Origin: Micromonospora coriariae
GTDB taxonomy: Bacteria; Actinomycetota; Actinomycetes; Mycobacteriales; Micromonosporaceae
Direction of reading: 5' to 3'
DNA length: 64,000 nt
Assembly: GCF_900091455.1 (NCBI RefSeq)
Contig: NZ_LT607412.1
Span: 1,550,001-1,614,000 of the forward strand
Shown: piece by piece, positions 36,975-58,786 of the stretch
How positions within the stretch are numbered: the first letter of the stretch is position 1
Layout of the letters: every line of letters begins with the position of its first letter
Program-made: the position numbers and the translations under genes
The notes under the pieces: generated by a model
What the model saw: only the letters and a program-made list of their open reading frames with translations
What the model was told of the DNA's origin: nothing
The model's database searches: none

Positions 36975-37019
36975 ATGTCAGCGGGAGGTCCAAAATGTAT
37001 GCGGTCTCGGAAGAGCTGA
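36975..37019 (+). CDS. Possible leaderless 14-codon leader peptide
   Basis: ATG at 36975, 7 nt after TACGGT, opens a short frame MSAGGPKCMRSRKS-stop that ends inside the HelD-like gene (overlap 25 nt, other frame). The ribosome site of the helicase gene (GGGAGG) lies inside it. It could be a translated leader controlling the downstream gene, or fortuitous. Confidence 0.35.
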   Translation: MSAGGPKCMRSRKS

Positions 37020-39346
37020 GTCGCGAGCAGAAGTACTTCGACGCGGCTTGGGACCACCGGGAGCGCATGCGCACGACTCTGGGTCTCGCCGCAGGCGCTG
37101 CCGCCAACAGCGGCGCCGCCGCGAGGATCAGGCAGGACACCCAAGCGCGACTGGACCGCATAGGCGGATCAGACGAGCCTGTCGCCTTCGGCCGGATGGA
37201 TTACGAGGACGGCGAGGTCTTCTACATCGGCCATCACGCGATCTTTGACGACCATGCTGAGCTGCTCGTCATGAACTGGCAGGCACCCGCCGCCGCCCGC
37301 TACTACGAGGCAAGTCATGCCGAACCTCTTGGCCTCCGGCTCAGGCGCAATTTCGAGTGCTCGAGCAACACGATCACGTCGTTCAACGACACGGTGTTCG
37401 CCCAATTGGCCGCCGACGTCGCGGAGCTGGAGGCGCACGAGGATGTCGTCGACGACGCGCTGCTCGCAGACCTCAACAGCAACCGCACCGGCACGATGCA
37501 GGACATCGTCCGGACGATCCAGGCGGCGCAGTTCGATCTCATCCGTGCCCCGATGGACCAGCTGTTGGTCGTTCAGGGCGGGCCGGGCACCGGCAAGACA
37601 GCAGTTGCGCTGCACAGGGTCTCGTGGCTGCTGTTCAACAGTCAGGGCCGACTCTCGGCCCAGGATGTCCTCATCATCGGCCCGAACCCCACGTTCACGC
37701 GCTACACCCGCACCGTGCTGCCCAGCCTGGGTGACACGAACATCGAACAACGTGACATCAACCAGCTGCATCCACCGGTGAAACGTGGTCGCCAAGAGGA
37801 TGCCGAAGTCGTGAGGCTGAAGGGCGACGGCAGGATGGCTGGGCTTCTGCAGCGGGCGCTCTATGCTCGGGTCGGCCCGCCCGAGGGACAGCACTGGGTT
37901 GAGGCGCAGATCGAGGGCCGCCCCGTGCCGATGGCCGCCGAGGAGCTCAAGCCCCTGATAGCGCGGTGCCGTGCCAGTGCCGGCACATACTCCGAGCGCC
38001 GGCACCTGTTCCGGGATCTGCTGACCGATCTCGTCTCCCCCCGGGTCCGCGTGAGTCAGCAACGACTACGGACGGCACTCGACCCCGTGATGGACAGGCT
38101 CTGGCCGTCGTTCACCGCCGCGTCGTTCCTGCGTGAGCTCTACGGCTCGCGGGACCGGCTGATGGGAGCGGCGGGCGACGAGTTCACGGCCCGGGAAGTT
38201 TCACTGTTGCACCGGCGGCCCGCCGATCGGCTCACCGAGGAGACGTGGAGCGACGCCGACCTTGCGGTGCTCGACGAGGCCGAGCACCTCATCAACAGCG
38301 TGGAGACCCGCTTTACGCACGTCGTCGTCGACGAGGCGCAGGACCTCTCCCCCATGCAACTGCGAACCATCGCCCGCCGCTCCGCCAACGGATCCATGAC
38401 CATCGTCGGGGACATCGCCCAGTCGACCGGCCACTGGGCGCGCGACGACTGGGACGAGGTTCTCGATCACCTGCCTGCCAATCTGCCCCAGGTCCGGGAA
38501 GAACTGCGTTACGGCTACCGGGTACCCCGACAGGTCTTCGAGCTTGCCGCCCAACTCCTGCCTCTCGCCGCTCCCACGGTGCAGGCGCCGCAAATCGTCC
38601 GGGACGGTCCGGCCGAGCCTCTCGTCCACCGGGTCGACGGGGACGAGCGTGCGGCTGAGTCCGTCCGCGTCGCGATGGGGCACGCGGCCCACGGCCGCTC
38701 CGTGGCCATCATCTGCCCCGCTTCCTGCCGCCCGGACACCGAACGAGAGCTGAAGGCCAAAGACGTGGCCTGGCGTGCCGCGTCCGCCGGTGAGCTCGGC
38801 CCAGGAATCAACCTGGTCGGTCCTCAGGAAGCCAAAGGCCTCGAGTTCGACGCGGTCGTCGTCATGGAACCGGAAGACATCGTCGCCGAGGACGACCGCG
38901 GCCACCGCTTGCTGTACGTCGCACTGACGAGAACCACGCGGTACCTCGACATCGTCTGCGTCGGAGACCCGCTCGCCATGGGCGACGACGACTGCGGGTC
39001 GGACGACACCGATGAGCCCTCTGCGGCGACCGGCGACGCCACCCACGCAGAGGAAGACTCGGATTTCAGACCGGACCCGTGGGGACCAGTCCTCCGTGAG
39101 GTGCTCGCTCCGAACCTCGCTGCAGCCAATGGGTCAGATACGGCCGACGGCAAGGACGGCCTGCGTGTCCGTCCTGCCACGGTGGTGGAGCCTTCCGACG
39201 CCCCGCCACGACGAGGACACGTCTCCCAGCGGTTCGTCGACCTGGCGGCGGAGGAGGTGGTCGCGCTACTCCGCGGAACTGTCGCGCCGAATCTGTGGGA
39301 GTCCGTACTAGCCAGAGCGGGCGAGATCCTCGACGCCGAGGGCTGA
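36995..39346 (+). CDS. HelD/HelR-like RNA polymerase-associated SF1 helicase
   Basis: A 783-residue UvrD-superfamily ATPase of the HelD group. A charged N-terminal helix pair (residues 3-60 and about 120-180) precedes the motor. Between them is FYIGHHAIFDDHAELLVMNWQAPAAARYYEAS, the family-specific 1A-like insert. Walker A GGPGTGKT is at 195-202, then VVVDEAQDLSPMQL, GDIAQSTGHW, and motifs V/VI AKGLEFDAVVVMEPE and LLYVALTRTTRYLDIV. The Asp/Glu/Ser-rich stretch near 670-700 is probably a loop. HelD proteins remove RNA polymerase from stalled complexes, and HelR members confer rifampicin tolerance; which applies here is unknown. GGGAGG precedes the ATG. Confidence 0.88.
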   Translation: MYAVSEELSREQKYFDAAWDHRERMRTTLGLAAGAAANSGAAARIRQDTQARLDRIGGSDEPVAFGRMDYEDGEVFYIGHHAIFDDHAELLVMNWQAPAAARYYEASHAEPLGLRLRRNFECSSNTITSFNDTVFAQLAADVAELEAHEDVVDDALLADLNSNRTGTMQDIVRTIQAAQFDLIRAPMDQLLVVQGGPGTGKTAVALHRVSWLLFNSQGRLSAQDVLIIGPNPTFTRYTRTVLPSLGDTNIEQRDINQLHPPVKRGRQEDAEVVRLKGDGRMAGLLQRALYARVGPPEGQHWVEAQIEGRPVPMAAEELKPLIARCRASAGTYSERRHLFRDLLTDLVSPRVRVSQQRLRTALDPVMDRLWPSFTAASFLRELYGSRDRLMGAAGDEFTAREVSLLHRRPADRLTEETWSDADLAVLDEAEHLINSVETRFTHVVVDEAQDLSPMQLRTIARRSANGSMTIVGDIAQSTGHWARDDWDEVLDHLPANLPQVREELRYGYRVPRQVFELAAQLLPLAAPTVQAPQIVRDGPAEPLVHRVDGDERAAESVRVAMGHAAHGRSVAIICPASCRPDTERELKAKDVAWRAASAGELGPGINLVGPQEAKGLEFDAVVVMEPEDIVAEDDRGHRLLYVALTRTTRYLDIVCVGDPLAMGDDDCGSDDTDEPSAATGDATHAEEDSDFRPDPWGPVLREVLAPNLAAANGSDTADGKDGLRVRPATVVEPSDAPPRRGHVSQRFVDLAAEEVVALLRGTVAPNLWESVLARAGEILDAEG

Positions 39347-39470: not shown

Positions 39471-40439
39471 ATGACGACAGTGGACACGACAAACGGTCTA
39501 CCCGCGCTGGGCAGGCTCGACAGCGTCGAGGTCCGTGACGTCTGGAAGCACGAGGCGCACACCTTCACGCCGTGGCTGCTCGCCAACGCCGAGGTTCTCG
39601 GTGATGTGCTGGGGATGGAGCTGGCACTTTCGGCCGCCGAGCACCCGGTGGGCGGCTTTTCGCTGGACCTCATCGGCATCGACGAGGCGACCAACGAGAC
39701 GGTGATCATCGAGAACCAGCTGGAGAGAACGGACCACAACCATCTGGGCCAACTGCTCACCTACGCGGGCGGGACCGACCCCGTGAACGTGGTGTGGATC
39801 GCGACCAGCTTCCGGGAGGAGCATCGCGCGGCCCTGGACTGGTTGAACACCAGGACCGACGAGAACACCCGGTTTTTCGGCATCGAGATCAGTGCCGTAC
39901 GGATCGGCCAGTCTGTTCCCGCACCGCTCATGCGCCTGGTCGTGCAGCCGAACGACTGGGGCAAGAGGGTAAGGGCGAGCACCCACGACGCCGCGACGAG
40001 CGGCCGCAACCAGGCCTACCAGTCGTTCTGGACGATGTTTCTGGCGGCTATCCAGCAGCGTCAGCTCCAGTGGACGACCTCTAGCAAGGGGTACCCGCAG
40101 AATTGGTACTCGTTGCCGAGCGGTATGAGCGGGGTGTCCTACGCCTGCACGTTCGGTCGCGCCGGGTTGTCGAGCGAGATCTTCTTCCAGCACCCCGATC
40201 CGGCAGTCAATGACGCTCGCTTCGCGGCGGCACAGTCGAAGCTCGAACCGGTCTACCCGGCGACCCTGTCCTTCGAGCCACTGACCGGCAGGAAGGGGTG
40301 CCGCATCGCCGAATACCGAGAAGGCGACATCGGGAACACCGACGGGTGGGGTGACTACGTCGAGTGGTTCATCGCTGCTCAGCTCCGTCTCCGCCAGGCG
40401 GTGGCCGCCGCTGGCGGCCTGCCCTCCCTCATCTCCTAG
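39471..40439 (+). CDS. PD-(D/E)XK-like nuclease with DUF4268
   Basis: A 322-residue protein. The N-terminal half has VWKHEAHTFTPWLLANAEVLGDVLGMEL, GGFSLDLIGID (Asp66) and VIIENQLERTDHNHLGQLLTYA (Glu81, Gln83): a PD-(D/E)XK core with Gln in place of the usual Lys. The C-terminal half (about 180-315, SFWTMFLAAI, GLSSEIFFQ) is DUF4268. Such proteins are usually annotated as putative restriction endonucleases or DUF4268 proteins. It is followed 18 nt later by another nuclease gene on the same strand, so the two are probably co-transcribed. The start is leaderless. Confidence 0.85.
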   Translation: MTTVDTTNGLPALGRLDSVEVRDVWKHEAHTFTPWLLANAEVLGDVLGMELALSAAEHPVGGFSLDLIGIDEATNETVIIENQLERTDHNHLGQLLTYAGGTDPVNVVWIATSFREEHRAALDWLNTRTDENTRFFGIEISAVRIGQSVPAPLMRLVVQPNDWGKRVRASTHDAATSGRNQAYQSFWTMFLAAIQQRQLQWTTSSKGYPQNWYSLPSGMSGVSYACTFGRAGLSSEIFFQHPDPAVNDARFAAAQSKLEPVYPATLSFEPLTGRKGCRIAEYREGDIGNTDGWGDYVEWFIAAQLRLRQAVAAAGGLPSLIS

Positions 40440-40457
40440 CTACATCAAGGAGGACGC

Positions 40458-41507
40458 ATGCCGTTGTACGAGATCCATGGGGACCGGCTACGCCGGCATG
40501 ACGTCGCGCGGTTCGCGGCTCTCGGCATCTACGAGCGCAACGATCTGCAGCGGCTTCTCCGTGACGACATCGCTGTGCTAAGTCCGGATCTGCTCGTCAT
40601 CGCCGAGGAGTTCGGGAACTGGGAGGACTCCCGGCGTCGCATCGACCTGCTCGCTGTGGACAAAGCCGGGCACCTGGTGGTCATCGAGCTGAAGCGCACC
40701 GATGATGGCGGCCACATGGAGCTGCAAGCTCTGCGGTACGCCGCGATGGTGTCCGCGATGAGCTTCGACGAGGTTGTCGCCGCCTTTGAGGTGCACCTGT
40801 CGAAGGTGCGACCGGATCCGGATGTCGACGCGCGGACCGCGCTCATCAGCTGGCTGGACCTGAGCGACAGCGACGACGCGCCGATCATCTCCTCCGACGT
40901 GCGGATCCTGCTCGTCTCGGCGGACTTCGGCCGGGAACTCACTACCGCGGTGCTGTGGCTGAATCGCTTCGAGGGCATGGACGTGCGTTGTGTCCGGCTG
41001 ATTCCGTACGAGATCGACGGGCGGGTCCTGCTGGACATCCAGCAGGTCATCCCGCTCCCCGAGGCTGCCGACTATCAGATCCGGGTGGGCCGGAAGGTCA
41101 CAGAACAGGAACGGCGCAGCACCGACGGCCGGGACTGGACGCGGTACCACATCATTGTCGACGGTCAGGTACTGCCGGACGAGAACAAGCGCCGTACGGT
41201 GCGGCTGATGATCGAGAAGCTGGTAGATCGCGGAGTGACTGCCGCGGCCATCGGGAAGGTCCTCACTCCAGGGCGCTTCCGGCCCCTCGAGGGAGAGCAC
41301 CACAGTGACGAGGAGGTCCAGGCCGCGCTAGCTGAGCAGTACCCTGGGGTGGAGGTCAGCCGCTGGTTCACCGGTCAGGCGATGGTCGAGGACGGCGTTA
41401 CCTGGGTGGTGCGCAAGATGTGGGGCCGCAACACCGAGCCAACCCTCTCTGTCCTGCGGGACGCATTCCCCGCGGCCGGAGTCAGATTCCAGCGAGCGAG
41501 CCCTTGA
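40458..41507 (+). CDS. PD-(D/E)XK nuclease-like protein
   Basis: A 349-residue protein with a clear restriction-type nuclease core: EEFGNWEDSRRRIDLLAVDKAGHLVVIELKRTDDGGHMELQALRYAAM gives Asp63, Glu77 and Lys79, and QxxxY at 90-94. This resembles the NucS/endonuclease-like group. The C-terminal 140 residues (YQIRVGRKVTEQERR, TVRLMIEKLVDRGVTAAAIGKVL) are not recognised and may bind DNA. AAGGAGG lies before the ATG. It is in one operon with the DUF4268 gene and likely acts on DNA. Confidence 0.85.
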   Translation: MPLYEIHGDRLRRHDVARFAALGIYERNDLQRLLRDDIAVLSPDLLVIAEEFGNWEDSRRRIDLLAVDKAGHLVVIELKRTDDGGHMELQALRYAAMVSAMSFDEVVAAFEVHLSKVRPDPDVDARTALISWLDLSDSDDAPIISSDVRILLVSADFGRELTTAVLWLNRFEGMDVRCVRLIPYEIDGRVLLDIQQVIPLPEAADYQIRVGRKVTEQERRSTDGRDWTRYHIIVDGQVLPDENKRRTVRLMIEKLVDRGVTAAAIGKVLTPGRFRPLEGEHHSDEEVQAALAEQYPGVEVSRWFTGQAMVEDGVTWVVRKMWGRNTEPTLSVLRDAFPAAGVRFQRASP

Positions 41508-41561
41508 TCCGGCTCCGGACAAGGGTGCGGGTATGAGCAACGGACCCGCGCACCAGAGCTG

Positions 41562-41660
41562 AGGTACGTATCAAGATCGCCACACTGATCACCGAGTTCT
41601 ACAACTGGCGCCTACGCCACTCGGTCTGCCACGGACTCTCACCGGAACAACGCCGAACTA
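41562..41660 (+). pseudogene. Possible transposase C-terminal remnant
   Basis: The frame IKIATLITEFYNWRLRHSVCHGLSPEQ resembles the FYNxxRxHSxLxxLSPxE end of integrase-core (IS3-like) transposases. It has no start and runs into a stop soon after. This is short and the similarity is only by eye. Confidence 0.35.
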
Positions 41661-41766
41661 GTTGCGGCGCGGGTGCCACCGGCGTAAGCACAAAGAGCAT
41701 TGCATGAAGGTGCTCATGGAACACTCCCTGACCGTCCTGATAGTCGCGGCACGCCAACTGAGCGAC

Positions 41767-41772
41767 TAGGCT
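41767..41772 (+). promoter_or_regulatory. -10 box TAGGCT, leaderless start of the nuclease-ATL fusion
   Basis: TAGGCT is followed by 7 nt and the ATG at 41780. No Shine-Dalgarno sequence is present. Confidence 0.5.
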
Positions 41773-41779
41773 ACCCGTC

Positions 41780-43165
41780 ATGGCCAGCCTGCCCAAGATC
41801 AGCCCGTTGAAGTGGACGAGCATCCGGGACGTGCTACCGCACGAGGCGCTCGACTTCACGCCGTGGCTCGCCTCTAATCTGGATCTTTTAGCCAACGTGC
41901 TGGGTCTTGAAGAGCTTGAACTGGTCGGGACCGAGTCCTCGGTTGACGCGTTTCGCTTAGACATCAGGGCTACGGGGACGGACGGCTCGGGGGAAGCCAT
42001 CGGCGTCGTGATTGAGAACCAGTACGACAAAACTGACCACGATCATCTCGGCAAGCTCGTGACCTATGCCGCCCGAGCGGACACGGAGGCCGAACGTGTG
42101 CTCGCTGTCTGGATCGTCGAGCATCCGGTGCCGGCGCACCTCGCAGCAATTGAATTCCTAAACCGGATCAGCGCCGCCCACGTCGGCTGGGTACTAATCT
42201 CGCCCCGATTCGTTCCGTCTCCAGACGGATATTTCGTCCACTTCGAGAAGCACGCTGAGCCCAACGCGTTCCTCCAGTCGGCGAAGGAGAGCGCAGCGCT
42301 GGCTTCCCCGGAGCGGGCGGCCTTCATGGCCGAACTCTTCGCCCTCGTTGACCAACCCCTTCGCAAGCAAGGGTTCCACCACGTCTGGTCGCACCCCGCC
42401 GGCCACATGATTAGGGCGTACCTGCCCAAGACATGGCCGGCAGCCAGTTGGGCGGAGATTCGAGTGCTGGCGGCACGTAACCGACTCCGGGTGGTGTTGT
42501 TCATTCGGGCGGGCCAGCTGCCGGTCGACTACAACATTAAGGTATTGGAGGGCATCCGCCAGCGACACGCTGCCGCGATTCAACAAGCAGTCGGTTCGAA
42601 CCCACCGATCGAGTGGCATGCCCGCAGCGACAGTGATCGCTGCGACTACAGCCGGATAACTTCAGAGGGTCACGGCTATTTGAGTGGCAAGCCGGAGGAA
42701 GCCGCGGAGCTCGTGACGCGCTTTGCGATGGCGGTGCTTGATGCACTCGGACAGGACGACGAGACGGACTTCCCCGACCCCGACCAGATCGAAAGCGCCA
42801 CCGGCCGAGCGGACACCGCGACCATCAGCGCCATCGCCGCATGCATCAAGCCGGGTGAGTGGGCGACTTACGGGGACCTGTCCAAAGTTGCCACAGGAAC
42901 GAGCAGCGCCGCGATCGCAGTAGGCACGATCGCGGCTAGGACGCCGGCATTCCCCAATCCCCACCGAATCCTCGCAGGCAAGGGCAAGATACCCAATAGC
43001 TGGGCCTCTTCGGACGGTGGTGGCCCAGATGCGTGTCGAGAGCGGCTAGGTGCGGAAGGGATTTCATTTCTCCCAGATGGCCGGGCCGCTCCTCAGCAGC
43101 GAGCGAGCGTTGATGCGCTGCGGACCCGATGGCGCGAACAGGCCACAGCCAGCGATCTAGGTTGA
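41780..43165 (+). CDS. PD-(D/E)XK/DUF4268 protein fused to an alkyltransferase-like domain
   Basis: A 461-residue three-part protein. Residues 1-150 are a nuclease-like core related to 39471-40439 (VDAFRLDIRA, Asp61; VIENQYDKTDHDHLGKLVTYAA, Glu79, Gln81). Residues about 180-320 are DUF4268-like. Residues 348-432 match the MGMT/ATL DNA-binding domain: IKPGEWATYGDLSKV, TSSAAIAVGTIAART, NPHRILAGKGKIP. Tyr364 of the nucleotide-flipping pocket is kept, but the Arg-finger position is Ile379 and the acceptor Cys of PCHR is Pro394, so it cannot be an alkyltransferase. It may recognise damaged or modified bases and direct the nuclease. Two TTA codons (41888, 41957) are unusual in such GC-rich DNA. Confidence 0.8.
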   Translation: MASLPKISPLKWTSIRDVLPHEALDFTPWLASNLDLLANVLGLEELELVGTESSVDAFRLDIRATGTDGSGEAIGVVIENQYDKTDHDHLGKLVTYAARADTEAERVLAVWIVEHPVPAHLAAIEFLNRISAAHVGWVLISPRFVPSPDGYFVHFEKHAEPNAFLQSAKESAALASPERAAFMAELFALVDQPLRKQGFHHVWSHPAGHMIRAYLPKTWPAASWAEIRVLAARNRLRVVLFIRAGQLPVDYNIKVLEGIRQRHAAAIQQAVGSNPPIEWHARSDSDRCDYSRITSEGHGYLSGKPEEAAELVTRFAMAVLDALGQDDETDFPDPDQIESATGRADTATISAIAACIKPGEWATYGDLSKVATGTSSAAIAVGTIAARTPAFPNPHRILAGKGKIPNSWASSDGGGPDACRERLGAEGISFLPDGRAAPQQRASVDALRTRWREQATASDLG

Positions 43166-43303: not shown

Positions 43304-44626
43304 TCAGATCTTTGCTCCGTGGGCCAACAAATGAGCCAGGACGGACTGGTTGGCCTCCCAGCCGTCGGGGAACTTGACAGGGGCGTTGAGGTGCACCGGC
43401 TCTGTCGAGGGATGGGCGTCGAGCAGCTCAGCGATCCCCGCCCGCGCCACCACGATGCATGCCTGCCGGTGCCGGGAAGTCAGAACGCAGAGCCGCCCCG
43501 ACTCCAGGTGGAACGCGGTCGCGTCCCGCCGCCCCGACAGCGGGTGCAGCACGATCGTTACGTCGTACTCGCGGCCCTGGAGCCGGTTGGCCGTGTCGAC
43601 GGTGATGCCCGCTCCCGCCTCACCGAGTTGCGCGCGGATGGCCGCGACCTGGTCGCGGTGCGCGGCACCGACGGCGATCCGGTCTGCGGTGACCGGCGCG
43701 CCGCCCGGCGCGCGTTCCGAGACGGCGACTGCTCCCCGCTCCAACACCCGCCGCGCCAACGCAGCACAGGCAGTTGCCGCCTCCGGGTCCGTCCGGAGGG
43801 TGTGCCGTGCCGGCAGCTCATACAGCGCCCACCCGGTCGACGCGGCCATCTCCACGGCCGCGTCGACCGGACCGTGACCGAACCCCGAGGTAGCGAACGA
43901 CAGCGACCGCTCGCCGGCGGTAGTGCCAGCTTGGAAACCGGTGAACGGGTAGAACGCCTCGGCCACCACCGGCGCCGCCGAGGGCGGCAGTCGCCAGGAC
44001 ACCGGCAGCCGGTGCACCGGCAGCTCCGGGTTGTGCCGTAGCAGCGCCGCCACCGCCGACTGCATCGGATCCCAGGTCAGGCCAGTCCACCGCTCGGTCT
44101 CGACGGTGGAGAACGGATCCAGTTGGCCGGGGTCGCCGACGAACAGGGCCCGCTCGAACCTGGCGGCAACGCGCAGCAGGGCGTCGGACCGCATCTGGTA
44201 CGCCTCGTCAACGATCGCCCAGGGCCAGCAACCTTCCGACACCATCGACCACTTCGCGGCCGTACCGATGATGACGGAGGGGCCGCCCAGGTCGGCGACC
44301 TTGGCGGCGACCCGGACCGTCCCGTACTGCTTGATCCGCTCGCTGGCCGTGTAGTCGTTCGCCGAGAGCCGGCCGATGTGCAGGTCCGGCGCCTTCTGGG
44401 CGAGCCGGTCGACCAGGTCGTCGACCTGCTCGTTGGTCTGCGCGATGACGATCAGCGGCTGGCCGGCCCGGGCCAGCTCGATGGCGGCGCGTACCACGAG
44501 GGTCGACTTGCCGGCCCCGGGCGGCGAGTCAACCACCACGCCGAGATGCTTGCCGGAGCGCAGATCGGCCAGGACGTCGGTGATCACCTGCTCCGCCTGC
44601 TCCGCAGGGGTACTGAAGCCGGTCAT
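43304..44626 (-). CDS. UPF1/Dna2-type SF1 helicase
   Basis: A 440-residue motor consisting only of the two RecA domains. Walker A PPGAGKST is at 35-42, motif Ia QTNEQVDDLVDRL at 63-75, Walker B VDEAYQM at 139-145, motif III GDPGQLDPF at 164-172, motif IV SWRLPPS (Arg212), motif V VDTANRLQGREYDVTIV and motif VI LTSRHRQACIVV. The order and wording are those of the UPF1-like SF1B helicases, but the 1B barrel normally inserted between Walker A and B is absent. It overlaps the upstream gene as ATGA and is the last gene of a four-gene operon. A broken copy of its N-terminal half lies at 63250-63560. Confidence 0.88.
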   Translation of the reverse strand: MTGFSTPAEQAEQVITDVLADLRSGKHLGVVVDSPPGAGKSTLVVRAAIELARAGQPLIVIAQTNEQVDDLVDRLAQKAPDLHIGRLSANDYTASERIKQYGTVRVAAKVADLGGPSVIIGTAAKWSMVSEGCWPWAIVDEAYQMRSDALLRVAARFERALFVGDPGQLDPFSTVETERWTGLTWDPMQSAVAALLRHNPELPVHRLPVSWRLPPSAAPVVAEAFYPFTGFQAGTTAGERSLSFATSGFGHGPVDAAVEMAASTGWALYELPARHTLRTDPEAATACAALARRVLERGAVAVSERAPGGAPVTADRIAVGAAHRDQVAAIRAQLGEAGAGITVDTANRLQGREYDVTIVLHPLSGRRDATAFHLESGRLCVLTSRHRQACIVVARAGIAELLDAHPSTEPVHLNAPVKFPDGWEANQSVLAHLLAHGAKI

Positions 44627-46137
44627 GACCACTCCTCGCGTGCGTCCTCGGCGGACGGAGCACCGTCGTCGAAGGGTGCGGGCGGTCCGCCGTGTGTCCA
44701 CGGCGTCTCCTCCCGCGTCGGGAAGGCGCCGGCCGGGAAGAACGTGTCGGTGAGCGTGGTGTAGCAGAGCCGCTCCCCCACCCCAGGCACGCTGCCCGGC
44801 GGCGGGGTCAGCGACGACCCCATTCCGCCGGCAAGCTCCAGCACCACCTCGGCGCTGCCGTCGTCGTTGCGGGCCATCGAGACGACCGTCGCCTTCTGGT
44901 TGCCGGGCCGGTCCGGCGAGAACAGCTTCGTACCGGGGGTGACCAGCACGGGGTCGGCCGTGGTGACCGTGATCCAGGGGCGCAGGACCCGCTTCTTGCC
45001 GCTGCTGTCCACCCGGGTCGGGTCGGCCGCGGTCACCTCGCCGACGAACGCCTCGCCGGTGAGCCGGTAGTCGGCCATCACCATCGGATCGTCGTAGGCG
45101 CGCTGCACGTCGTACGACGCCTGGGCCCGCTCCAGCCGGTGCAGCCGCTTGGCCGCCGCCACCGCTCCGTCCCGGCGGGCCTGCGGAAAACCGCCCCCGT
45201 CGACGTACTCAGTGAAGTTGGTGAAGGCATCGCGGTCCTCAGCCCAGCGCCCGGCGACCCGGGACCCGACGGGCAACTCGCGGAGCAGCGACACTCCCTG
45301 CCACATCAGCCGCCAGGTCGGCTCGAGCTGCGACCGCAGGAGGTCTTCCAGCTCGGCGCGTCTCCGGTCGACCAGCGAGTCGGTGCTGACCGCCCGCTGG
45401 TACGCGGTCATCGCCGGCGCCAGGACCTCGTTGTCGAAGCTGGGGTCGGTGATCGGGCCAGCCGGCGGCCAGGTCACAGGGTCCTCGGCGGCCGCCGCCG
45501 CCTGTGCGCCGGTCAGGCCGTCCGGCGGTGCGATCCATGCCAGGAGCGCGGCGAGCTGAGCGTCCTCGAGCGGGCTCTGACCGGTCGCCCAGTGCAGGGT
45601 CAGCGCCTGCGTCATCGCGACGAGCGAGCAGGAGCCGGGATGTTCGGCCCGCTCGGCGAAGTAGGTCAGCCAGCGGCCGAGCAGCGGCACGGACGGGTGC
45701 ACCGGGTAGTCGCCGTCGGTGCGCCGGAACCGGGTGGAGCGGCCGAAGAGGCGGGTGAAGCCGGCGCCGCCCGGGTTGGGGACGAGCAGTTGGGGCGCGT
45801 CGGCGTACCGGATCCGGATGTCTTTGCCCCGATTCACCGACACCGCTTCCAGCTCACCGCGGAAGCTGTCGATGTACGGTAGGACGACGGCGGCGAGCTC
45901 GGCGGCGAAGGCGAAGCGCTGATCCCGGTTCCGCGGCTGCGGGACGATCAGCAGCGTCGGGGCGTCCGGGTCGTCGCCGACCATCGCGGCGAGCGGCGCG
46001 TTCGCCTCACCGGCCATGGTCAGCGGGATGAAGACCAGGGGCCGCTCGGTGACGTGCGTGTGGCGGACCAGGGTGGTTCGCTGTGCGCGGCCTTCGACAA
46101 CGGCTTCGGCGCGCGCCAGGGTGGTGAGGGTGGTCAT
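44623..46137 (-). CDS. Hypothetical protein, probable beta-barrel accessory of the helicase
   Basis: A 504-residue protein without recognised family. The first 200 residues are mixed alpha/beta (VFIPLTMAGEANAPLAAMVGDD, TLLIVPQPRNRDQRFAF). Residues about 260-350 are charged helices (ELEDLLRSQLEPTWRLMWQGVSLLREL, AAKRLHRLERAQASYDVQRAY) that could form a stalk. Residues 365-450 are strand-rich (GEAFVGEVTAADP, PWITVTTADPVLVTPGTKLF, KATVVSMARNDDGSAEVVLEL), like the barrel that precedes the motor in Dna2/UPF1-type helicases. ATGA overlaps on both sides couple it to nuclease and helicase. The structural reading is inference. Confidence 0.75.
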   Translation of the reverse strand: MTTLTTLARAEAVVEGRAQRTTLVRHTHVTERPLVFIPLTMAGEANAPLAAMVGDDPDAPTLLIVPQPRNRDQRFAFAAELAAVVLPYIDSFRGELEAVSVNRGKDIRIRYADAPQLLVPNPGGAGFTRLFGRSTRFRRTDGDYPVHPSVPLLGRWLTYFAERAEHPGSCSLVAMTQALTLHWATGQSPLEDAQLAALLAWIAPPDGLTGAQAAAAAEDPVTWPPAGPITDPSFDNEVLAPAMTAYQRAVSTDSLVDRRRAELEDLLRSQLEPTWRLMWQGVSLLRELPVGSRVAGRWAEDRDAFTNFTEYVDGGGFPQARRDGAVAAAKRLHRLERAQASYDVQRAYDDPMVMADYRLTGEAFVGEVTAADPTRVDSSGKKRVLRPWITVTTADPVLVTPGTKLFSPDRPGNQKATVVSMARNDDGSAEVVLELAGGMGSSLTPPPGSVPGVGERLCYTTLTDTFFPAGAFPTREETPWTHGGPPAPFDDGAPSAEDAREEWS

Positions 46138-47264
46138 CCGGCCACCCCGCTGATCAGCTCGGCCCGGAGTCGGGCGGCGGCCCGCAGCAGTTCCGCGGCC
46201 TCGTGCTGGTCCGCGGCGGGCGCCCGCTGGTCACGGGCGATAGCGAGGGCCGTCTCCACCCGGTCGATGCCGCCCATCTCCTCCAGGGCCGCCTTGCCGA
46301 GGGCGGCGGTGCACCCGCGGGCCTCGTGCCGGCAGAGGTACGCCAGCTCGCAGCTGGCCAGGCACTCCGGCGAGTACCGGGCCTCGACCTCTTCAAGGGC
46401 GGCGATGAGCGAGGCGGGCGAGCGGGTGGGCACGCCCTTGTCGTCGGGCGCCAGGTCGAAGGTCAAGTCGGCGGGCAACTCGGCGAGCAGGGCGTCGACG
46501 CGGGTCATCCGGGTCAGCTGCCGGCGTACCACGGCGAGTTGCTTGCGCACGTCGACCCGGACGGCCATCGGCTGGTTGGAGAAGTCCCGGGGGCAGACCA
46601 GCACCACGTCGTGGGACACGACCTCCGGGTCGTAGCCGGCCTCACCGAGCATCTCCCGCATGGCGAGCACGTAGACGGCGGCCTGGGTGGCTGCGGCGGC
46701 TACCTTGCCGGAGTCGGCCTGCCCGTCGATGACGGCGAACGACTTGATCTCGACGACGTGGAAGAGGCCGTCGTGCTGGAACGCGATCAGGTCGGGTTCC
46801 AGGTAGGCCTGCTGACCGGCGACCTCGAGCCGCAGCAGCGGGTGGTCGAAGAGCGTGCCAGCGCCGTCAGCCTGGGCCGCGGCCCGAGTCAGCAGGGCCT
46901 TCGCTCGGGAGTAGCGCACGTCCTGGCTCTCCCGGCCCGCCACCGATTCGAGGTCGTCGTAGGACACCTCAGGGACGCTCAGGTCGAGCAGGTCGCGGAG
47001 CAGGCTGAGCAGCTCGGCGCAGCCGTTGGCCTTGACCTGCGCCTCGAAGACGTTGCCGCGGGTGATGGCGAACTGCGACTGGCCGAACCGGGCGGGGTAG
47101 TCGACGTACGCGGCGAGGCGCTGCTTGTCGACCCCGGCGCAGTCCAGAACGGCGCGGCGGGCGCAGCCCGGGTTGCCGGTGAGGGCAGCGATGGTGCGGG
47201 CGTTGTGCCGGGCGGGCTCGACGCCGCCCCGGATCGCGGCCAGCCGCTGGCTGGTGCTGGTCAT
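46134..47264 (-). CDS. Cas4/RecB-family nuclease with Fe-S cluster motif
   Basis: A 376-residue nuclease. Catalytic residues are Asp158 (YLEPDLIAF), Glu172 and Lys174 (VVEIKSF), and QxxxY at 194-198, the RecB/Cas4/Dna2 nuclease motifs II-IV; RGNVFEAQV (69-77) matches motif I with Glu in place of His. Cys34 near the N-terminus and Cys301, Cys305, Cys311, Cys318 near the C-terminus (ECLASCELAYLCRHEARGC) have the split arrangement of Fe-S-cluster nucleases such as AddB, Cas4 and Dna2. It should degrade single-stranded DNA ends. It is coupled by ATGA overlaps to the coiled-coil gene before it and the barrel protein after it. Confidence 0.85.
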   Translation of the reverse strand: MTSTSQRLAAIRGGVEPARHNARTIAALTGNPGCARRAVLDCAGVDKQRLAAYVDYPARFGQSQFAITRGNVFEAQVKANGCAELLSLLRDLLDLSVPEVSYDDLESVAGRESQDVRYSRAKALLTRAAAQADGAGTLFDHPLLRLEVAGQQAYLEPDLIAFQHDGLFHVVEIKSFAVIDGQADSGKVAAAATQAAVYVLAMREMLGEAGYDPEVVSHDVVLVCPRDFSNQPMAVRVDVRKQLAVVRRQLTRMTRVDALLAELPADLTFDLAPDDKGVPTRSPASLIAALEEVEARYSPECLASCELAYLCRHEARGCTAALGKAALEEMGGIDRVETALAIARDQRAPAADQHEAAELLRAAARLRAELISGVAG

Positions 47265-48070
47265 GCCAACCCCCTGATGACCCTCAGCCGGCTACCGAAG
47301 AGTTGTTCGGCCTCGTCGAGCTGGGCTCGCGCGCGGTCCGCCGCCGCGGCGCGCTGCGCCCGGTCGGCGTCGGCGTGCACCTCCAGCTCGGCATGAGCGG
47401 CGTTGATGACGATCGCCGGGTCTGCGGCCTCGTGCCCGTCGACCGCGCCGGGGATGCTGGTGGCGAAGCGGCGCAGCAGGCGGGCCACCGTGAGGGTCCG
47501 CTCCGGCATGCGCCCGACCTGCTCGGCGACCTTGATGGCGGCCGTCAGGAAGTCCACCCGGGGGCTGAGCGGGCCGATGATGCGCCGCTCCAGCGGCCAG
47601 GTTGACACGCCGAGCAGGCCACGGGCCGGCGCGAGGTGTTCGGCGGTCAGCGCCGAACAGAGGTAGTAGGGCCGAGAGTGCCGCGCGGTGCGAAACGAGC
47701 GTTCCTCGTCGCGTCGCAGGTGGGTCAGCTTGGCTGCGGCGAGGCCAGGACCGGCGGCGCCGAAGAAGGCGTTGTGCACCTCGGTGATGAGCTTCGGCGC
47801 GGTGGGAGCGGACAGGAGCGTGAGAGCGTGGTGGACCTGGTCGCGCACCGACACCAGGGGTGCCTCATCCGCCGCCGGCTGACCGGCGTCCGGCGTGTCG
47901 TCAGCCAGGTCGGTGAGGGCCCGCTCCCAATCGCGCTCGGCGGACCGTAGCTCGGCGCGCAGGGCCCGGGCTCGGGCCTGGTCGCGTGCCACGACTGCCC
48001 GTCGGACCGCCGCCCGCAGGTCGTCGATCCGACGTTCGAGGTTCTCTATGGACTCAGCCACATCGAGCAT
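47261..48070 (-). CDS. Coiled-coil/helical protein, first gene of the nuclease-helicase operon
   Basis: A 269-residue, almost all-helical protein of unknown family. Residues 1-55 form a heptad-like coiled coil (ENLERRIDDLRAAVRRAVVARDQARARALRAELRSAERDWERAL). The middle has KLTHLRRDEERSFRTARHSRPYYLC, and the end another charged helix (ADRAQRAAAADRARAQLDEAEQLF). The ATG at 48070 is the last possible before the coiled coil; no clear ribosome site is seen. It is divergent from the Rad50-like gene across 94 nt and couples by ATGA to the nuclease gene. Confidence 0.75.
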   Translation of the reverse strand: MLDVAESIENLERRIDDLRAAVRRAVVARDQARARALRAELRSAERDWERALTDLADDTPDAGQPAADEAPLVSVRDQVHHALTLLSAPTAPKLITEVHNAFFGAAGPGLAAAKLTHLRRDEERSFRTARHSRPYYLCSALTAEHLAPARGLLGVSTWPLERRIIGPLSPRVDFLTAAIKVAEQVGRMPERTLTVARLLRRFATSIPGAVDGHEAADPAIVINAAHAELEVHADADRAQRAAAADRARAQLDEAEQLFGSRLRVIRGLA

Positions 48071-48082
48071 GCTACAAGTTCC

Positions 48083-48146
48083 AGTGTTTCCCAGCAATCC
48101 CCCGTAACCAGGATTGTTGATACGGGGAACACTACTTACGGTTACG
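48083..48146. promoter_or_regulatory. Dyad-rich divergent promoter of the nuclease-helicase module
   Basis: Three imperfect or perfect dyads share the 94-nt gap: AGTGTTTCCC/GGGGAACACT (48083-48092/48124-48133, one mismatch), AGCAATCC/GGATTGTT (48093-48100/48111-48118, one mismatch) and CGTAACC/GGTTACG (48103-48109/48140-48146, perfect). They sit where both divergent promoters must lie, so one regulator may control both arms. Confidence 0.5.
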
Positions 48147-48164
48147 CCTGGAAGGGAGACCCGC

Positions 48165-50627
48165 ATGGCCTGGGACCAATCCCTACTTGACCAGGTTTTT
48201 GACCGGTTGGCTGAGAGCAACGTGGCCGACGACGTAATCGACCTCGTCCTTGCGGCCTACGTCGGCGACGTCGCCCTCGACGGAGTCCTCGCCGGCGAGG
48301 CCGTCGACCTTCCGGAGCGGGACCCCGCCCTCCGCTCACGGCCGCGACCGCTCTACCTGGAGTCCATCACCGTCGCGGGCTTCCGGGGCGTCGGTCCACA
48401 ACAGGCTCTTCGGCTCCAGCCGCACGCCGGGCTCACCCTCGTTGTCGGCCGTAACGGCTCCGGCAAGTCCAGCTATGCGGAGGCCGTCGAGCTCGCCCTC
48501 ACCGGCGACAGCGCCCGCTGGGCCGACCGCAACAGCGTCTTCAAGGACGGCTGGCGCAACCTGCACTGCGGGTCGCCCTGCGAGGTCGAGGTGCAGCTCC
48601 GCGCCGAGGGAGCCAGCAAGCCCATTCGCGTACGGCGAAACTGGCACGACGAACACACCCAGGCCCACCAGGGCATCGGCAGCGTCTTGACGGACGACGG
48701 GGAGCGCTACACGGAGACGGCGGAGCTGGGCTGGCGCGAGCCACTCGACACGTACCGCCCGTTCCTCACCGCGAGCGATCTCGGCCGCCTCGTCACCTCC
48801 ACCCCCAGTGGCCTCTTCGACGCCCTCGCACCGATCCTCGGCATGGATCCGGTCGTCGAGGCGGACAAGCGGCTGATGCGGGTCCGCCGTGAGTTCAACG
48901 AGCAGATCACGTCGGTCAAGACGGCCCGCGATGCGCTGCGTACGGCGCTTGTGGGGGTCGACGACCATCGGGCGCAGGCCATCGCCGCGCTCCTGGCGAA
49001 GCGGACCGTCGATCTCAACGCTCTCGACCAGCTACTCGCCGACGCCGGAAGCGACACCAACGACCCGCTCGCCGTGGCGGCCCGCCGCGTGGTCGCCGTC
49101 GCTCTCCCCGACCACGGATACGCCCTCGAGGTTGCGAACGAGCTCGCCGCCGCGGCGGCGCAGATCGCGGAGCTCTCCACCACCCGCGCCGGCACCGCGG
49201 ACCAGGCGGCCCAAGTGCTACGGATGGCCGTCGCCTTTCATGACGAGCACGGCGAGAGCCCCTGTCCGGTCTGCGGCAGCGGAGCACTGGATGCTGCCTG
49301 GCGCGCTCGGGCCGGGGACACTCTGGATCAGCTTCAGCGCGACACGGTCGCCGTTGACCAGGCGCACCGCCGGCTGCAGGACGCGCGGTCCCGCGCCGCG
49401 CGGCTGCTCGATCTCGACCGGCGGGTCAGCGCCGACGACTTGGAGGCGATGGCCGCCGCCCTCGACCAGCCCGAGGCGGTGAAGCGGTTCCGCACCAAGG
49501 CCGACGAGCTGCGCATCCCCGCTGCCGAACTCACCGCCGAGCAACTCGCGGCGCACCTACGGGCGGCGTATCCGCCGCTGGTCGAGGCGTTCGCGGCGGT
49601 GCAGGACGAGGCGAGCGCCTGGCTGCGGCAGCGCCACGACGCCTGGCGTGAGCATGCCGCCTCGTTGCAGGACTGGCTCAACCGGGCCCGCACCGGCGCC
49701 GAGAACGACGCGAAGCTGAAGCGGGTCAACGCCGCCCGCGACTGGCTGCGGAGCGCGATCACCGCGCTGCGCGACCAGCGGTTCGAGCCCTTCGCCCAGC
49801 GCTCACAGGAGATCTGGGACGAGCTGCGTCAGGAGAGCAACGTCGAGCTGAGTGGGATGCGGCTCGACGGCACCAACACCCGCCGCAAGATTTCCTTCCC
49901 GGCCAAGGTCGACGGCACCACGACGTCCGCGATGGCGGTCATGAGCCAGGGCGAGCTCCAGGCGCTCGGCCTGTCCGTGTTCCTGCCCCGCGCCTGCGCC
50001 GACGACAGCCCGTTCCGGTTCGTCATCATCGACGACCCGGTGCAGAGCATGGACCCGTCGAAGGTCGACGGCCTGGCGCAGGTGCTGGCCGGCTTGGCGC
50101 AGACCCGGCAGGTCGTGGTGTTCACCCACGACAACCGGCTACCGGAAGCGATCCGCCGGCTGCGCATCGAGGCCACCATCTGGGCGGTCACCCGGCGCGA
50201 CGAGTCGGTAATTGAGATCCGGAAGAACAGCGACCCGACCGAGCGGTACCTCAACGATGCCACCGCGATCCTCAAGGCGGAGGGGCTGGCCGACAACGCC
50301 CGCTACCCGCTGGTGTCCGGCTTCTGCCGGTCGGCGTTGGAGGCGGCGTGCCACGAGCGGATCCGACGGGAGCGCATCAGCCGCGGCGAACGGCACGGCG
50401 ACGTCGAGGAGCTCATCGAGAAGGCGCTGACGCTCAACCAGGTGGCCGCCCTGGCGCTCTTCGGTGACATGCACCAGGGCGGCAAGGTTCTCAGTCGGCT
50501 CAACAAGTTCGGCGGGTGGGCCGGTGACGCGTTCCAGGCCTGCAAGCAGGGCGTACACAAGCCCGGAACGTTCGATCTTGAGGTGCTCGTCCGTGACTGC
50601 CGCCGCCTCGTCGAGGAGTTGCGATGA
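48165..50627 (+). CDS. Rad50/SbcC-like ATPase with zinc hook
   Basis: An 820-residue SMC-related ATPase. About 65 N-terminal residues precede the motor (LYLESITVAGFRGVG). Walker A GRNGSGKS is at 95-102. A helical arm leads to the zinc hook CPVC (367-370) and back. The signature is SQGEL (594-598), Walker B VIIDDPVQSMD (620-630) with D-loop, and H-loop His655 (VVFTHDNR). The arms are short (about 120 residues per side) compared with Rad50. A C-terminal helical region (680-820) follows the motor and is not in Rad50. GGGAG lies before the ATG. It overlaps the next gene as ATGA and is divergent from the nuclease operon. Confidence 0.85.
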   Translation: MAWDQSLLDQVFDRLAESNVADDVIDLVLAAYVGDVALDGVLAGEAVDLPERDPALRSRPRPLYLESITVAGFRGVGPQQALRLQPHAGLTLVVGRNGSGKSSYAEAVELALTGDSARWADRNSVFKDGWRNLHCGSPCEVEVQLRAEGASKPIRVRRNWHDEHTQAHQGIGSVLTDDGERYTETAELGWREPLDTYRPFLTASDLGRLVTSTPSGLFDALAPILGMDPVVEADKRLMRVRREFNEQITSVKTARDALRTALVGVDDHRAQAIAALLAKRTVDLNALDQLLADAGSDTNDPLAVAARRVVAVALPDHGYALEVANELAAAAAQIAELSTTRAGTADQAAQVLRMAVAFHDEHGESPCPVCGSGALDAAWRARAGDTLDQLQRDTVAVDQAHRRLQDARSRAARLLDLDRRVSADDLEAMAAALDQPEAVKRFRTKADELRIPAAELTAEQLAAHLRAAYPPLVEAFAAVQDEASAWLRQRHDAWREHAASLQDWLNRARTGAENDAKLKRVNAARDWLRSAITALRDQRFEPFAQRSQEIWDELRQESNVELSGMRLDGTNTRRKISFPAKVDGTTTSAMAVMSQGELQALGLSVFLPRACADDSPFRFVIIDDPVQSMDPSKVDGLAQVLAGLAQTRQVVVFTHDNRLPEAIRRLRIEATIWAVTRRDESVIEIRKNSDPTERYLNDATAILKAEGLADNARYPLVSGFCRSALEAACHERIRRERISRGERHGDVEELIEKALTLNQVAALALFGDMHQGGKVLSRLNKFGGWAGDAFQACKQGVHKPGTFDLEVLVRDCRRLVEELR

Positions 50628-51037
50628 CCACTCCGACCGCCGCCTCGGCGCAGAGTTGCCTGGACACCGCCGACCAGCTGCTGACCAGCGTCATGCGCGG
50701 TACTCGTGGCGCCTGGCCGCGCGCCTGCGCCTGGCTGCTCCGGCTGGCGTTGGAGACCGCGATGGACGACTACTGGCTGCGGTCGCGCCCGGAGATCGTT
50801 TCGATGCGCGCCCGGTCGCCCCAATTTCTCGTCCTTGACCGCTACGCCGGCCGGCACATCGCCGCCCGGGCCGGTTACGCCTGGTCGGCGCTGTCCAGGG
50901 CGGGCCATCACCACAGCTACGAGCTCGGCCTCACCGCAGGCGAGCTCCGCCGGCTGCGGGAGATGGTGGCAGCAGTGGTGCACGACTTGGCGCGCGCGCA
51001 GGTCGAGCAGGCGCGGGGAGCCGATGACGGTGCTTGA
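50624..51037 (+). CDS. Small helical protein co-translated with the Rad50-like ATPase
   Basis: A 137-residue protein starting at the ATGA overlap. It appears all-helical (DTADQLLTSVMRG, WPRACAWLLRLALETAMDDYWLRSRP, WSALSRAGHHHSYELGLTAGELRRLREMVAAVVHDLARA). Size and helical content would fit a HEPN-like or adaptor protein, but the HEPN RxxxxH motif is not clearly present. Tight coupling implies that it works with the ATPase. Confidence 0.75.
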   Translation: MTTPTAASAQSCLDTADQLLTSVMRGTRGAWPRACAWLLRLALETAMDDYWLRSRPEIVSMRARSPQFLVLDRYAGRHIAARAGYAWSALSRAGHHHSYELGLTAGELRRLREMVAAVVHDLARAQVEQARGADDGA

Positions 51038-51415: not shown

Positions 51416-51826
51416 TTACTCGCCACCGCCTGCCGCGCGGCGGGGCCTGGGGATCTGCCGGTTGAAGCGTGGCTTCAGGGCTAGGACCAAGGCTTCCTTC
51501 GCACCCTCCGGGTTGTCGGTCTCCTGCCATCGGACCTTGCACCGACCCAGCCAGCCCGCGATGTCTGCGGCCGACGCCGCGTTGTGCGGAGTGTCGAGGA
51601 GCTGTCCGACCTGGTCGTGCAGCACCGATGACTCGCGGTTGCCGGTCAGGTGCTGCCGGAGACGACCCCGTAGACCCCGCCTGGTCCGGCCGACGTAGAT
51701 GACCACGCCGCCGTCGAGGACCACGTGCACGCCGGGCGCGCGGGGAGCGTCGGCGACGGTCTCCATGGTGTACGGCTGGGGAGCCGTGAAGCCGGCCAGC
51801 AGGTCGTCGTGGGTGGCGTCGGGCAT
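51416..51826 (-). CDS. GIY-YIG nuclease-like protein
   Basis: A 136-residue protein. PGVHVVLDGGVVIYVGRTRRGLRGRLRQHLTG (31-62) is a GIY-YIG core with the first motif written GVH and the second YVG, followed by the expected Arg and His. The later KEALVLALKPRFNRQ has the conserved Glu and Asn-containing end. A single-strand or nicking activity is possible. It lies 9 nt after the stop of the small gene at 51836-52099 and is the last gene of a four-gene minus-strand operon. Confidence 0.8.
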   Translation of the reverse strand: MPDATHDDLLAGFTAPQPYTMETVADAPRAPGVHVVLDGGVVIYVGRTRRGLRGRLRQHLTGNRESSVLHDQVGQLLDTPHNAASAADIAGWLGRCKVRWQETDNPEGAKEALVLALKPRFNRQIPRPRRAAGGGE

Positions 51827-57804: not shown

Positions 57805-58786
57805 GGGCAGCCTCCAGATCGGAGAGCATCGTCTCAAGCGTGACGACGAAGCTGTCAATCTCTTTAAGTTCAACCTGATATCTGACTCTACCGATGCCAG
57901 TCCGTAGGATGTCGGGAGTGATCCTCGGGAAATCTGGTCTGACCTGATATATCGACATTCCGTCGATAGACCAGATGTTGGTATACGAGTCTTCCTCCCG
58001 ATAACCAGTTGCCGCCAGCCGAGACTCCAGCAGGTCACTGGCCCACGGCGCATGGTCCTCGAAGCAAGTTCGCAGGCGACTCACCCAGCCGTGGAGCGTA
58101 GTCGCGTCAGCGCCCTCGCGAGGTATCTCGTTGACCGAGAAGACCACTAGGTAGAGGGCTTCGAACGACACCATGTCCAACTGGTGCTCGGAGCTGATGC
58201 TGACCGCCGGTACGGCTCCGCCCCGCTGCGTCTTCACCTCGATGGCAGTCGGAGAAAACTCGAAGTCCTTAGGCCCGTCCAGCGGACCCCACCATCCCGT
58301 TACCGCCTCTTTAGCGCCGATCGACGGAATCAGATGCTCCTGAATGAGCCTGAGCTCGCCGACCAATCCCTTCTGCTCCGAGTTGGTGAGGACATGTGAA
58401 GGAGCTCCCCGCATGAGGTGGTGCCAGCGCCAGGTTCGGGCAATTACCCTCCGGACCGCGTCCGACTCAGTAGGAGCCAGGCCGGCTGCCTCCATAATGT
58501 CGACGCAGAGGCGGTGGAATAGGTCCGTCGACCCCGCATCCTTCAGCGCAAGCCAGAGGTGCACCTTGCCCGCTTTGTCTGCGTCGCCGAAAGAAAGCTC
58601 GACGCCACGCAGTTCCGGCAGCGTCGCGTCGCCGATCGAGGACGGTTGAACGGACATGGTCCAAGCCCTGCGCCCCCTAGCGTCCCTCGCCCAGTAGCAG
58701 TCCCAGCGGTGGCCCGGATCGGCTCGGACTGCTGTGGCGGTACCCATCGTGGTCGCGGGGCGCAGACCCGCCCAGGGATCGCTCAT
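57797..58786 (-). CDS. PD-(D/E)XK motif protein (DUF4420-type)
   Basis: A 329-residue protein with a nuclease core in its centre: GLVGELRLIQEHLIPSIGAKEAVTGWWGPLDGPKDFEFSPTAIEVKTQ gives Glu144, Asp174, Glu183 and Lys185. The flanking regions are family-specific. It is the endonuclease of the MORC/Z1/AIPR set. The ATG overlaps the Z1 stop as TGATG. Confidence 0.88.
   Translation of the reverse strand: MSDPWAGLRPATTMGTATAVRADPGHRWDCYWARDARGRRAWTMSVQPSSIGDATLPELRGVELSFGDADKAGKVHLWLALKDAGSTDLFHRLCVDIMEAAGLAPTESDAVRRVIARTWRWHHLMRGAPSHVLTNSEQKGLVGELRLIQEHLIPSIGAKEAVTGWWGPLDGPKDFEFSPTAIEVKTQRGGAVPAVSISSEHQLDMVSFEALYLVVFSVNEIPREGADATTLHGWVSRLRTCFEDHAPWASDLLESRLAATGYREEDSYTNIWSIDGMSIYQVRPDFPRITPDILRTGIGRVRYQVELKEIDSFVVTLETMLSDLEAARG

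What the first reader, a model, noticed from the sequence alone, without database searches (positions are those of the whole stretch)
43304..51037. Six-gene divergent module: split Dna2-like nuclease/helicase plus Rad50-like zinc-hook ATPase
Four minus-strand genes joined by ATGA overlaps (coiled-coil, Fe-S RecB/Cas4 nuclease, barrel-like 504-residue protein, SF1B helicase) face two plus-strand genes, also ATGA-joined (Rad50-like ATPase with CPVC hook, 137-residue helical protein). End-resection chemistry (Rad50-like sensing, Dna2-like helicase-nuclease) is complete in one locus inside a defence island. I do not recognise it as a named system; candidate roles are defence against linear phage or plasmid DNA, or a dedicated repair pathway.
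Basis: partly seen in the sequence, partly recalled or inferred. Interest (0 to 1): 0.88.

Follow-up and report, generated by a model that had tools for sequence, protein, structure and literature searches.

The report
Mobile six-gene DNA-end-processing cassette
A soil bacterium carries a transferable-looking six-gene block, sitting among anti-virus genes, that joins a three-part DNA-cutting helicase machine to a DNA-end-sensing type of ATPase and a possible RNA-cutting partner; it looks like an unnamed defence system and has a widespread sister version in related bacteria.

Summary
In detail: six ORFs, four ATGA junctions, two divergent operons. In five of 13 relatives compared, DNA homology spans the block and ends at or within 0.1 kb of its borders; in the 97% identical relative it runs on to 52.7 kb. 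I count 15 distinct contigs, all Micromonosporaceae, with the Rad50-like/HEPN pair divergent from the four-gene operon. The nine linked ATPases tested form one clade (100/99) against 17 stand-alone ones. The operon pairs with SbcD-SbcC in other accessory lineages (18 distinct downstream loci), so the Rad50-type partner is exchangeable. A version of the core is in 141 of 150 Streptomyces genomes. New here: the 504-aa protein models as an RNase H-like domain plus SF1B stalk and barrel, so gene order mirrors single-chain TM0106 helicase-nucleases (structure level only). The 137-aa protein models as HEPN-like; the ATPase has RloC-like motifs. MZA-like and PDC-S11 genes flank it. Best reading: mobile anti-phage or anti-plasmid end-processing system with a possible RNase arm. 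Function is inferred, not tested. The literature tool failed, so novelty rests on Pfam, NCBIfam 2026, PADLOC 2023 and recall.

The parts
43304..44626 (-). hel: small SF1B (Upf1/Dna2-like) helicase motor, 440 aa
   Evidence: Pfam AAA_11/AAA_12; PDB profile hits SMUBP-2, DNA2, UPF1; hhalign to TM0106 helicases E 3.4e-19; conserved SPPGAGKS, DEAYQMRSD, GDPGQLDP, VDTANRLQG, SRHR
44623..46137 (-). 504-aa protein ('barrel'): RNase H-like, polymerase-exonuclease-like domain (about 31-298) + SF1B stalk and barrel (about 319-479)
46134..47264 (-). nuc: Cas4/RecB-type Fe-S nuclease by motif, 376 aa
   Evidence: invariant C34, R69, D140, E172, K174, Q194, Y198, C301, C305, C311; E74 and D158 nearly invariant; same motif order in TM0106 N-termini; hhalign not significant
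   Evidence: no Pfam family above cut-off
48071..48164 (.). divergent intergenic region
   Evidence: 92-121 bp between ATPase and cc matches in the 8 linked loci of the 80; window sequence
48165..50627 (+). rad: Rad50/RloC-like zinc-hook ABC ATPase, about 820 aa
   Evidence: SMC_N, AAA_23; CPxC and DD of Walker B, R721 and E725 in 26 of 26 rows, H797 in 23 of 23 rows with a letter there
50624..51037 (+). HEPN-like protein, 137 aa; R92-x4-H97-x-Y99 in the window

Best explanation
A mobile anti-phage/anti-plasmid system that works on DNA ends. Shown: the six genes recur as a unit of two operons, and accessory copies of the helicase-nuclease operon are paired with a Rad50-family partner, either this RloC-like ATPase+HEPN pair or SbcD-SbcC. 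Inferred: the ATPase detects or tethers free or aberrant DNA ends and, with cc as adaptor, loads a three-subunit Dna2/TM0106-type machine in which the 440-aa motor translocates, the 504-aa subunit supplies stalk, barrel and an RNase H-like domain without an evident catalytic DxE, and the Fe-S nuclease cuts the unwound strand, so that invading linear DNA is degraded. Most speculative: prolonged ATPase engagement frees the HEPN protein as an RNase (as in RloC/PrrC, recalled), a growth-arrest back-up that SbcCD versions lack.
For: Block borders in relatives. Collinear operon: of 80 cc loci, nuc in 79, 504-aa in 74, hel in 72, some contigs cut. Nine linked ATPases one clade, 100/99. In the family sample all eight full-length ATPase matches at 51% identity or more are cc-linked. 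In Micromonospora 7 of 8 window-type loci carry the ATPase/HEPN pair and 9 of 9 loci of the 48-57% class carry sbcD and sbcC. L108 has both partners. Seven genomes carry an accessory copy plus a 67-70% identical second copy. Neighbours: PDC-S11 and MZA-like genes in the window; Hma, DruE, Cas, GmrSD_N or Wadjet genes elsewhere. Models.
Confidence: 0.6

Rival explanations
1. An accessory DNA-repair complex (end resection or tethering) rather than defence: the mobile copy is a spare or specialised repair helicase-nuclease paired with Rad50-type proteins.
For: Core in 141 of 150 Streptomyces genomes, at one syntenic site in the 11 such loci looked at; partner exchange with SbcCD, a repair complex.
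Against: Window type sporadic (8 of 151 Micromonospora genomes at 79% identity or more); block-like borders; coexists with a second copy in 7 genomes; lies among defence genes in the loci looked at; carries a HEPN-like gene.
Confidence: 0.22
2. Two independent systems that merely travel together: a helicase-nuclease operon and a separate RloC-like ATPase/HEPN system that share a divergent promoter region.
For: Each half is usually found without the other.
Against: One ATPase clade is linked; the link is seen in three lineages of the core tree; SbcD-SbcC accompany the operon in other accessory lineages; one stand-alone pair lies beside a single-chain TM0106 gene (L074).
Confidence: 0.13
3. Inter-element competition or maintenance function of mobile or linear replicons, for example protecting or trimming plasmid ends.
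For: In two Streptomyces plasmid records, one linear and one listed as circular, the 504-aa match lies about 13 and 4 kb from a record end, beside Wadjet genes; one has SbcC and SbcD divergent.
Against: Only 3 of 72,556 plasmid records matched; the other loci are chromosomal or draft contigs.
Confidence: 0.05

Closest known systems
TM0106-family single-chain RecB-like nuclease/helicase (TIGR03491 + RNase_H_2 + AAA_11/12)
   Same: Domain order equals the operon's gene order; helicase homologous
   Different: Here three proteins; the 504-aa model's first strand has no DxE where the TM0106 protein reads DFE; nuclease and middle part not detectably homologous by profile
Eukaryotic Dna2 (Cas4-like nuclease + SF1B helicase; layout recalled)
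   Same: Motor class; profile hit to DNA2 structures
   Different: Split, bacterial, extra RNase H-like domain and cc
RloC / PrrC (AAA_13) anticodon nucleases (function recalled)
   Same: CPxC hook, DDPxxSxD Walker B, C-terminal R-x3-E and H, also seen in three AAA_13 proteins
   Different: AAA_13 score below cut-off (22.2 vs 36 bits); local profile match only in the ATPase lobe; a separate HEPN-like protein in addition
SbcCD / Mre11-Rad50
   Same: Rad50-like ATPase; SbcD-SbcC accompany the operon in other lineages
   Different: No SbcD in the module; the ATPase aligns with a plasmid SbcC only around Walker A and, weakly, the hook
Lamassu, MADS, Mokosh (PADLOC)
   Same: Distant ATPase or helicase similarity (LmuB 64, mad3 68, MkoA 41 bits)

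Membership tests
TM0106-type helicase-nuclease | single polypeptide | tested here: not met
   three ORFs
TM0106-type helicase-nuclease | Cas4/RecB nuclease motifs with four Cys | tested here: met
   same motif order, similar spacing, read by eye; profile comparison not significant
TM0106-type helicase-nuclease | RNase_H_2 domain with catalytic acids | tested here: inconclusive
   similar fold class, no Pfam hit; strand 34-40 of the model has no acid; no residue-level superposition made
TM0106-type helicase-nuclease | SF1B AAA_11/AAA_12 helicase | tested here: met
RloC/PrrC (AAA_13) | AAA_13 model above cut-off | tested here: not met
   22.2 bits vs cut-off 36
RloC/PrrC (AAA_13) | CPxC hook in the ATPase | tested here: met
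   26 of 26 rows
RloC/PrrC (AAA_13) | C-terminal anticodon-nuclease domain with R-x3-E...H (triad recalled) | tested here: inconclusive
   motif conserved and seen by eye in three AAA_13 proteins; no profile-level homology of this domain
HEPN | HEPN fold | tested here: met
HEPN | catalytic Rx4-6H (recalled) | tested here: inconclusive
   R92-x4-H97 in the window; R92 in 9 of 9 linked, 7 of 16 stand-alone rows; H97 replaced in L117 and L065
SbcCD/Mre11-Rad50 | SbcD/Mre11 subunit in the module | tested here: not met
   no such match among the nine window proteins scanned; NCBIfam does hold SbcD models
Lamassu | LmuA effector and LmuC partner | tested here: inconclusive
MADS | full mad gene set | tested here: inconclusive

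The most novel reading that the evidence does not exclude
A new class of defence system in which a tripartite split Dna2/TM0106-type helicase-nuclease with a non-catalytic RNase H-like scaffold is licensed by interchangeable Rad50-family end sensors. In this branch the sensor is RloC-like and carries two RNase-type elements (its own C-terminal R-x3-E/H domain and a separate HEPN protein), so one end-recognition event triggers both DNA destruction and translation shut-down. The system was recruited from a near-universal Streptomyces complex, or the reverse.
Probability: 0.3. Interest if true: 0.88.

Novelty: new variant of a known kind. Interest (0 to 1): 0.72.

Why it matters
It would be an unnamed system that links DNA-end sensing to nucleolytic attack and perhaps an RNase arm, with a natural experiment built in: the same helicase-nuclease core paired with an RloC-like/HEPN pair or with SbcCD. 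It also points to a helicase-nuclease core found in 141 of 150 sampled Streptomyces genomes for which I recall no assigned role and which can be knocked out directly.

Tried and rejected
AdnAB/RecBCD identity: the motor is SF1B AAA_11/12-type, not UvrD-like. SbcC identity of the ATPase: weak match only. HEPN protein and ATPase C-terminus as homologues: hhalign probability 1.1%. Sequence homology of the 504-aa protein or nuclease to TM0106: not significant with shallow profiles of 7 and 6 rows. Phage carriage: 504-aa protein not found in phage records or, by two peptide patterns, in viral contigs; ATPase 3 viral hits of 27-38%. RNA families in 42-53 kb: none at gathering score; tRNA in the window: none. 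Repeats of 12 bases between 42.9-43.4 and 50.95-51.7 kb: none. Nuclease profile against PDB: two designed repeat proteins (E 3.7e-10, 6.2e-7), taken as spurious. HEPN and cc profiles against PDB: hits of E 0.24 and 0.013 or worse, ignored. A 434-aa PDB 'putative deoxyribonuclease' (9kwf_B) matched the helicase at positions 24-79, E 9.6e-6, and could not be followed up.

Literature: the paper search failed and paper reading. No paper was seen; statements on RloC, PrrC, Dna2, Lamassu, MADS, HepT and the exonuclease domain of B-family polymerases are recalled.

On re-check of this report: the block-border claim, intergenic distances, HEPN residue counts, the count of Actinoplanes-type genomes and the TM0106 count were mended.
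Full report
OBSERVATION. All four junctions read ATGA and the operons lie about 94 bp apart. The genome is one contig of 6.93 Mb. Genus Micromonospora is inferred: G532 is of the same genus and its contig has the length of Micromonospora musae L082.

UNIT. The window was compared as DNA with 13 loci. L225, L231, L258, L260 and L261 match from 43.28-43.34 to 50.95-51.09 kb with nothing in the adjoining sequence of their roughly 20 kb stretches, apart from a second match of the helicase region at window 63.3 kb and two extra patches in L258. The closest, L257 (97%), runs on to 52.7 kb. L081 keeps only part of the operon and also matches 40.4-41.5 and 51.4-52.1 kb. L259, L084, L083 and L090 share parts; L108 and L117 match patchily across the block. 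In the five loci a GmrSD_N gene lies between the 504-aa and helicase genes (Pfam on L082); the window lacks it.

FOUR-GENE OPERON. The 504-aa protein is in 16 of 396 actinobacterial genomes. Of 17 loci fetched, 16 have nuclease-504-helicase collinear, 3 have cc, none has the ATPase or HEPN gene by tblastn. A genome-contig scan with cc found 350 relatives, 80 kept. In these 80: nuclease 79, 504-aa 74, helicase 72 (several contigs are cut); ATPase and HEPN divergent from cc in 8; sbcD and sbcC downstream of the helicase in 10; L108 has both, so 17 of 80 have a Rad50-family partner.

RAD50-TYPE PARTNERS. The ATPase/HEPN pair is a unit of its own: in 18 stand-alone loci 17 have a tblastn HEPN match beside the ATPase, two of them weak or partial (L075, L066), and the eighteenth (L072) has a 125-aa ORF there with a similar motif. 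Nine linked ATPases form one clade against 17 stand-alone ones, 100/99. Sampling differed (linked rows from the cc scan, the others from 396 genomes), so the family test matters. In 250 genomes of the own family the ATPase (E 1e-50) is in 50 and cc in 73, 43 of these full-length (E under 1e-60). Sixteen have both ATPase and full-length cc, and 9 have them divergently adjacent. All eight full-length ATPase matches at 51% identity or more are linked. Of the other matches only the frameshifted G549 copy is; partial matches of 52-53% in G559, G589 and G625 are in genomes without a cc match. L081 has lost most of the operon, L100 is cut by its contig end and L114 has a frameshifted ATPase.

In 151 Micromonospora genomes the 504-aa protein is in 108. 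Classes by identity: 8 genomes at 79% or more (window type), 9 at 48-57%, most of the rest at 65-72%, plus two copies at 31-33% that I did not look at. Window-type loci: 7 of 8 have ATPase and HEPN; L259 does not. Of the 48-57% class, 9 of 9 have sbcD and sbcC behind the helicase; one, L263, gave no cc match. With the 10 and one overlap (L266 = L113), 18 distinct loci have downstream sbcDC. Seven genomes hold an accessory copy and a 67-70% second copy (G532, G817, G823, G535, G544, G585, G639); in G803 the second copy is broken. Of the 65-72% class I inspected only L021: nuclease and 504-aa genes together, helicase 36 kb off. In the g264 (Actinoplanes/Paractinoplanes) group with a shorter, 33-43% cc, three loci looked at (L220-L222) have cc-nuclease-504 adjacent and no helicase in the fetched stretch. 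All 11 such genomes tested, and G204, do have a helicase gene, 6.5 kb away in G564.

STREPTOMYCES VERSION. 141 of 150 genomes have the 504-aa protein. In 11 loci (L024-L034) nuclease-504-helicase sit at one syntenic site with no cc match. In the 93-row tree these 11 form one clade; nine downstream-sbcDC rows lie in a clade of 10 (L146 lacks it), L108 apart from them; ATPase/HEPN rows fall in three lineages (quick model, long branches noted by the program).

PLASMIDS. Three of 72,556 records matched. Streptomyces NBC_01244 carries SbcC-SbcD divergent from cc-nuclease-504-helicase, then Wadjet genes. WAC00288 has the four genes and Wadjet genes, with a short 'AAA family ATPase' gene in place of SbcC. 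The third, Nonomuraea, is unannotated. L035, a second copy in a Streptomyces genome, has genes that I read as SbcC and SbcD divergent from cc.

SURROUNDINGS. PDC-S11 at 40.5-43.2 kb; the gene at 39471-40439 was not in that call but shares a BLAST cluster with 41780-43165. MzaB, MzaC, MzaD and MzaE-like genes at 55.7-63.0 kb, all below NCBIfam's curated cut-offs. Elsewhere: HmaA/HmaB next to L112, with matching genes at L114, L229, L230 and L022 (L229 and L230 are L112 and L114 again); DruE at L088; Cas_GSU0053/0054 proteins at L095; Wadjet. These are loci I looked at; no enrichment test was made.

INFERENCE. Pairing of accessory copies with a Rad50-family partner, the block borders, the coexisting second copy and the neighbours favour defence over repair; the Streptomyces version keeps repair as the main rival. 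The HEPN arm is the least certain step.

Noticed in passing
window 63330-63548 (-): Remnant of a second helicase gene: 74 residues, 72% identical to the module's helicase, Walker A lysine missing, beside the MZA-like genes.
   Followed up: partly
window 55726-63002 (-): MzaB, MzaC, MzaD, MzaE-like genes (MZA anti-phage system, NCBIfam; scores below the curated cut-offs).
   Followed up: partly
window 39471-43165 (+): Genes of the PADLOC candidate PDC-S11; the 461-aa one ends in a methylguanine-methyltransferase-type DNA-binding domain, just at the Pfam cut-off.
   Followed up: no
window 36995-39346 (+): HelR/HelD-like RNA polymerase recycling motor (343 bits to an NCBIfam model with cut-off 1100).
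   Followed up: no
L061 (G000:C1:5379000-5398900): Second, unlinked ATPase/HEPN pair in the same genome, about 47-48% identical; its HEPN protein has T where the window has R92.
   Followed up: partly
L082, L084, L085, L225, L257, L258, L261 and L227: GmrSD_N (DUF262) gene: before the helicase in the first seven contigs, behind the helicase in L227 (Pfam on L082); absent from the window.
   Followed up: partly
L024-L034: Syntenic Streptomyces locus: nuclease-504-helicase near genes read by eye (L034) as a PAP2-type phosphatase, a histidine phosphatase and a small conserved protein.
   Followed up: partly
L074:4992-11303: Stand-alone ATPase/HEPN pair followed on the same strand by a single-chain TM0106 helicase-nuclease.
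   Followed up: partly
L022:13238-19477: PD-(D/E)XK protein and a pPIWI-RE Z domain protein beside cc in a Streptomyces copy that also has HmaA/HmaB-like genes.
   Followed up: no
G246 contig C8: An ATPase/HEPN pair (L067) and a four-gene operon (L022) on one contig about 17 kb apart, not adjacent.
   Followed up: no
window 51416-51826 (-): GIY-YIG endonuclease-like gene just outside the module; similar genes lie in degraded module L081 and in L084 and L257.
   Followed up: no
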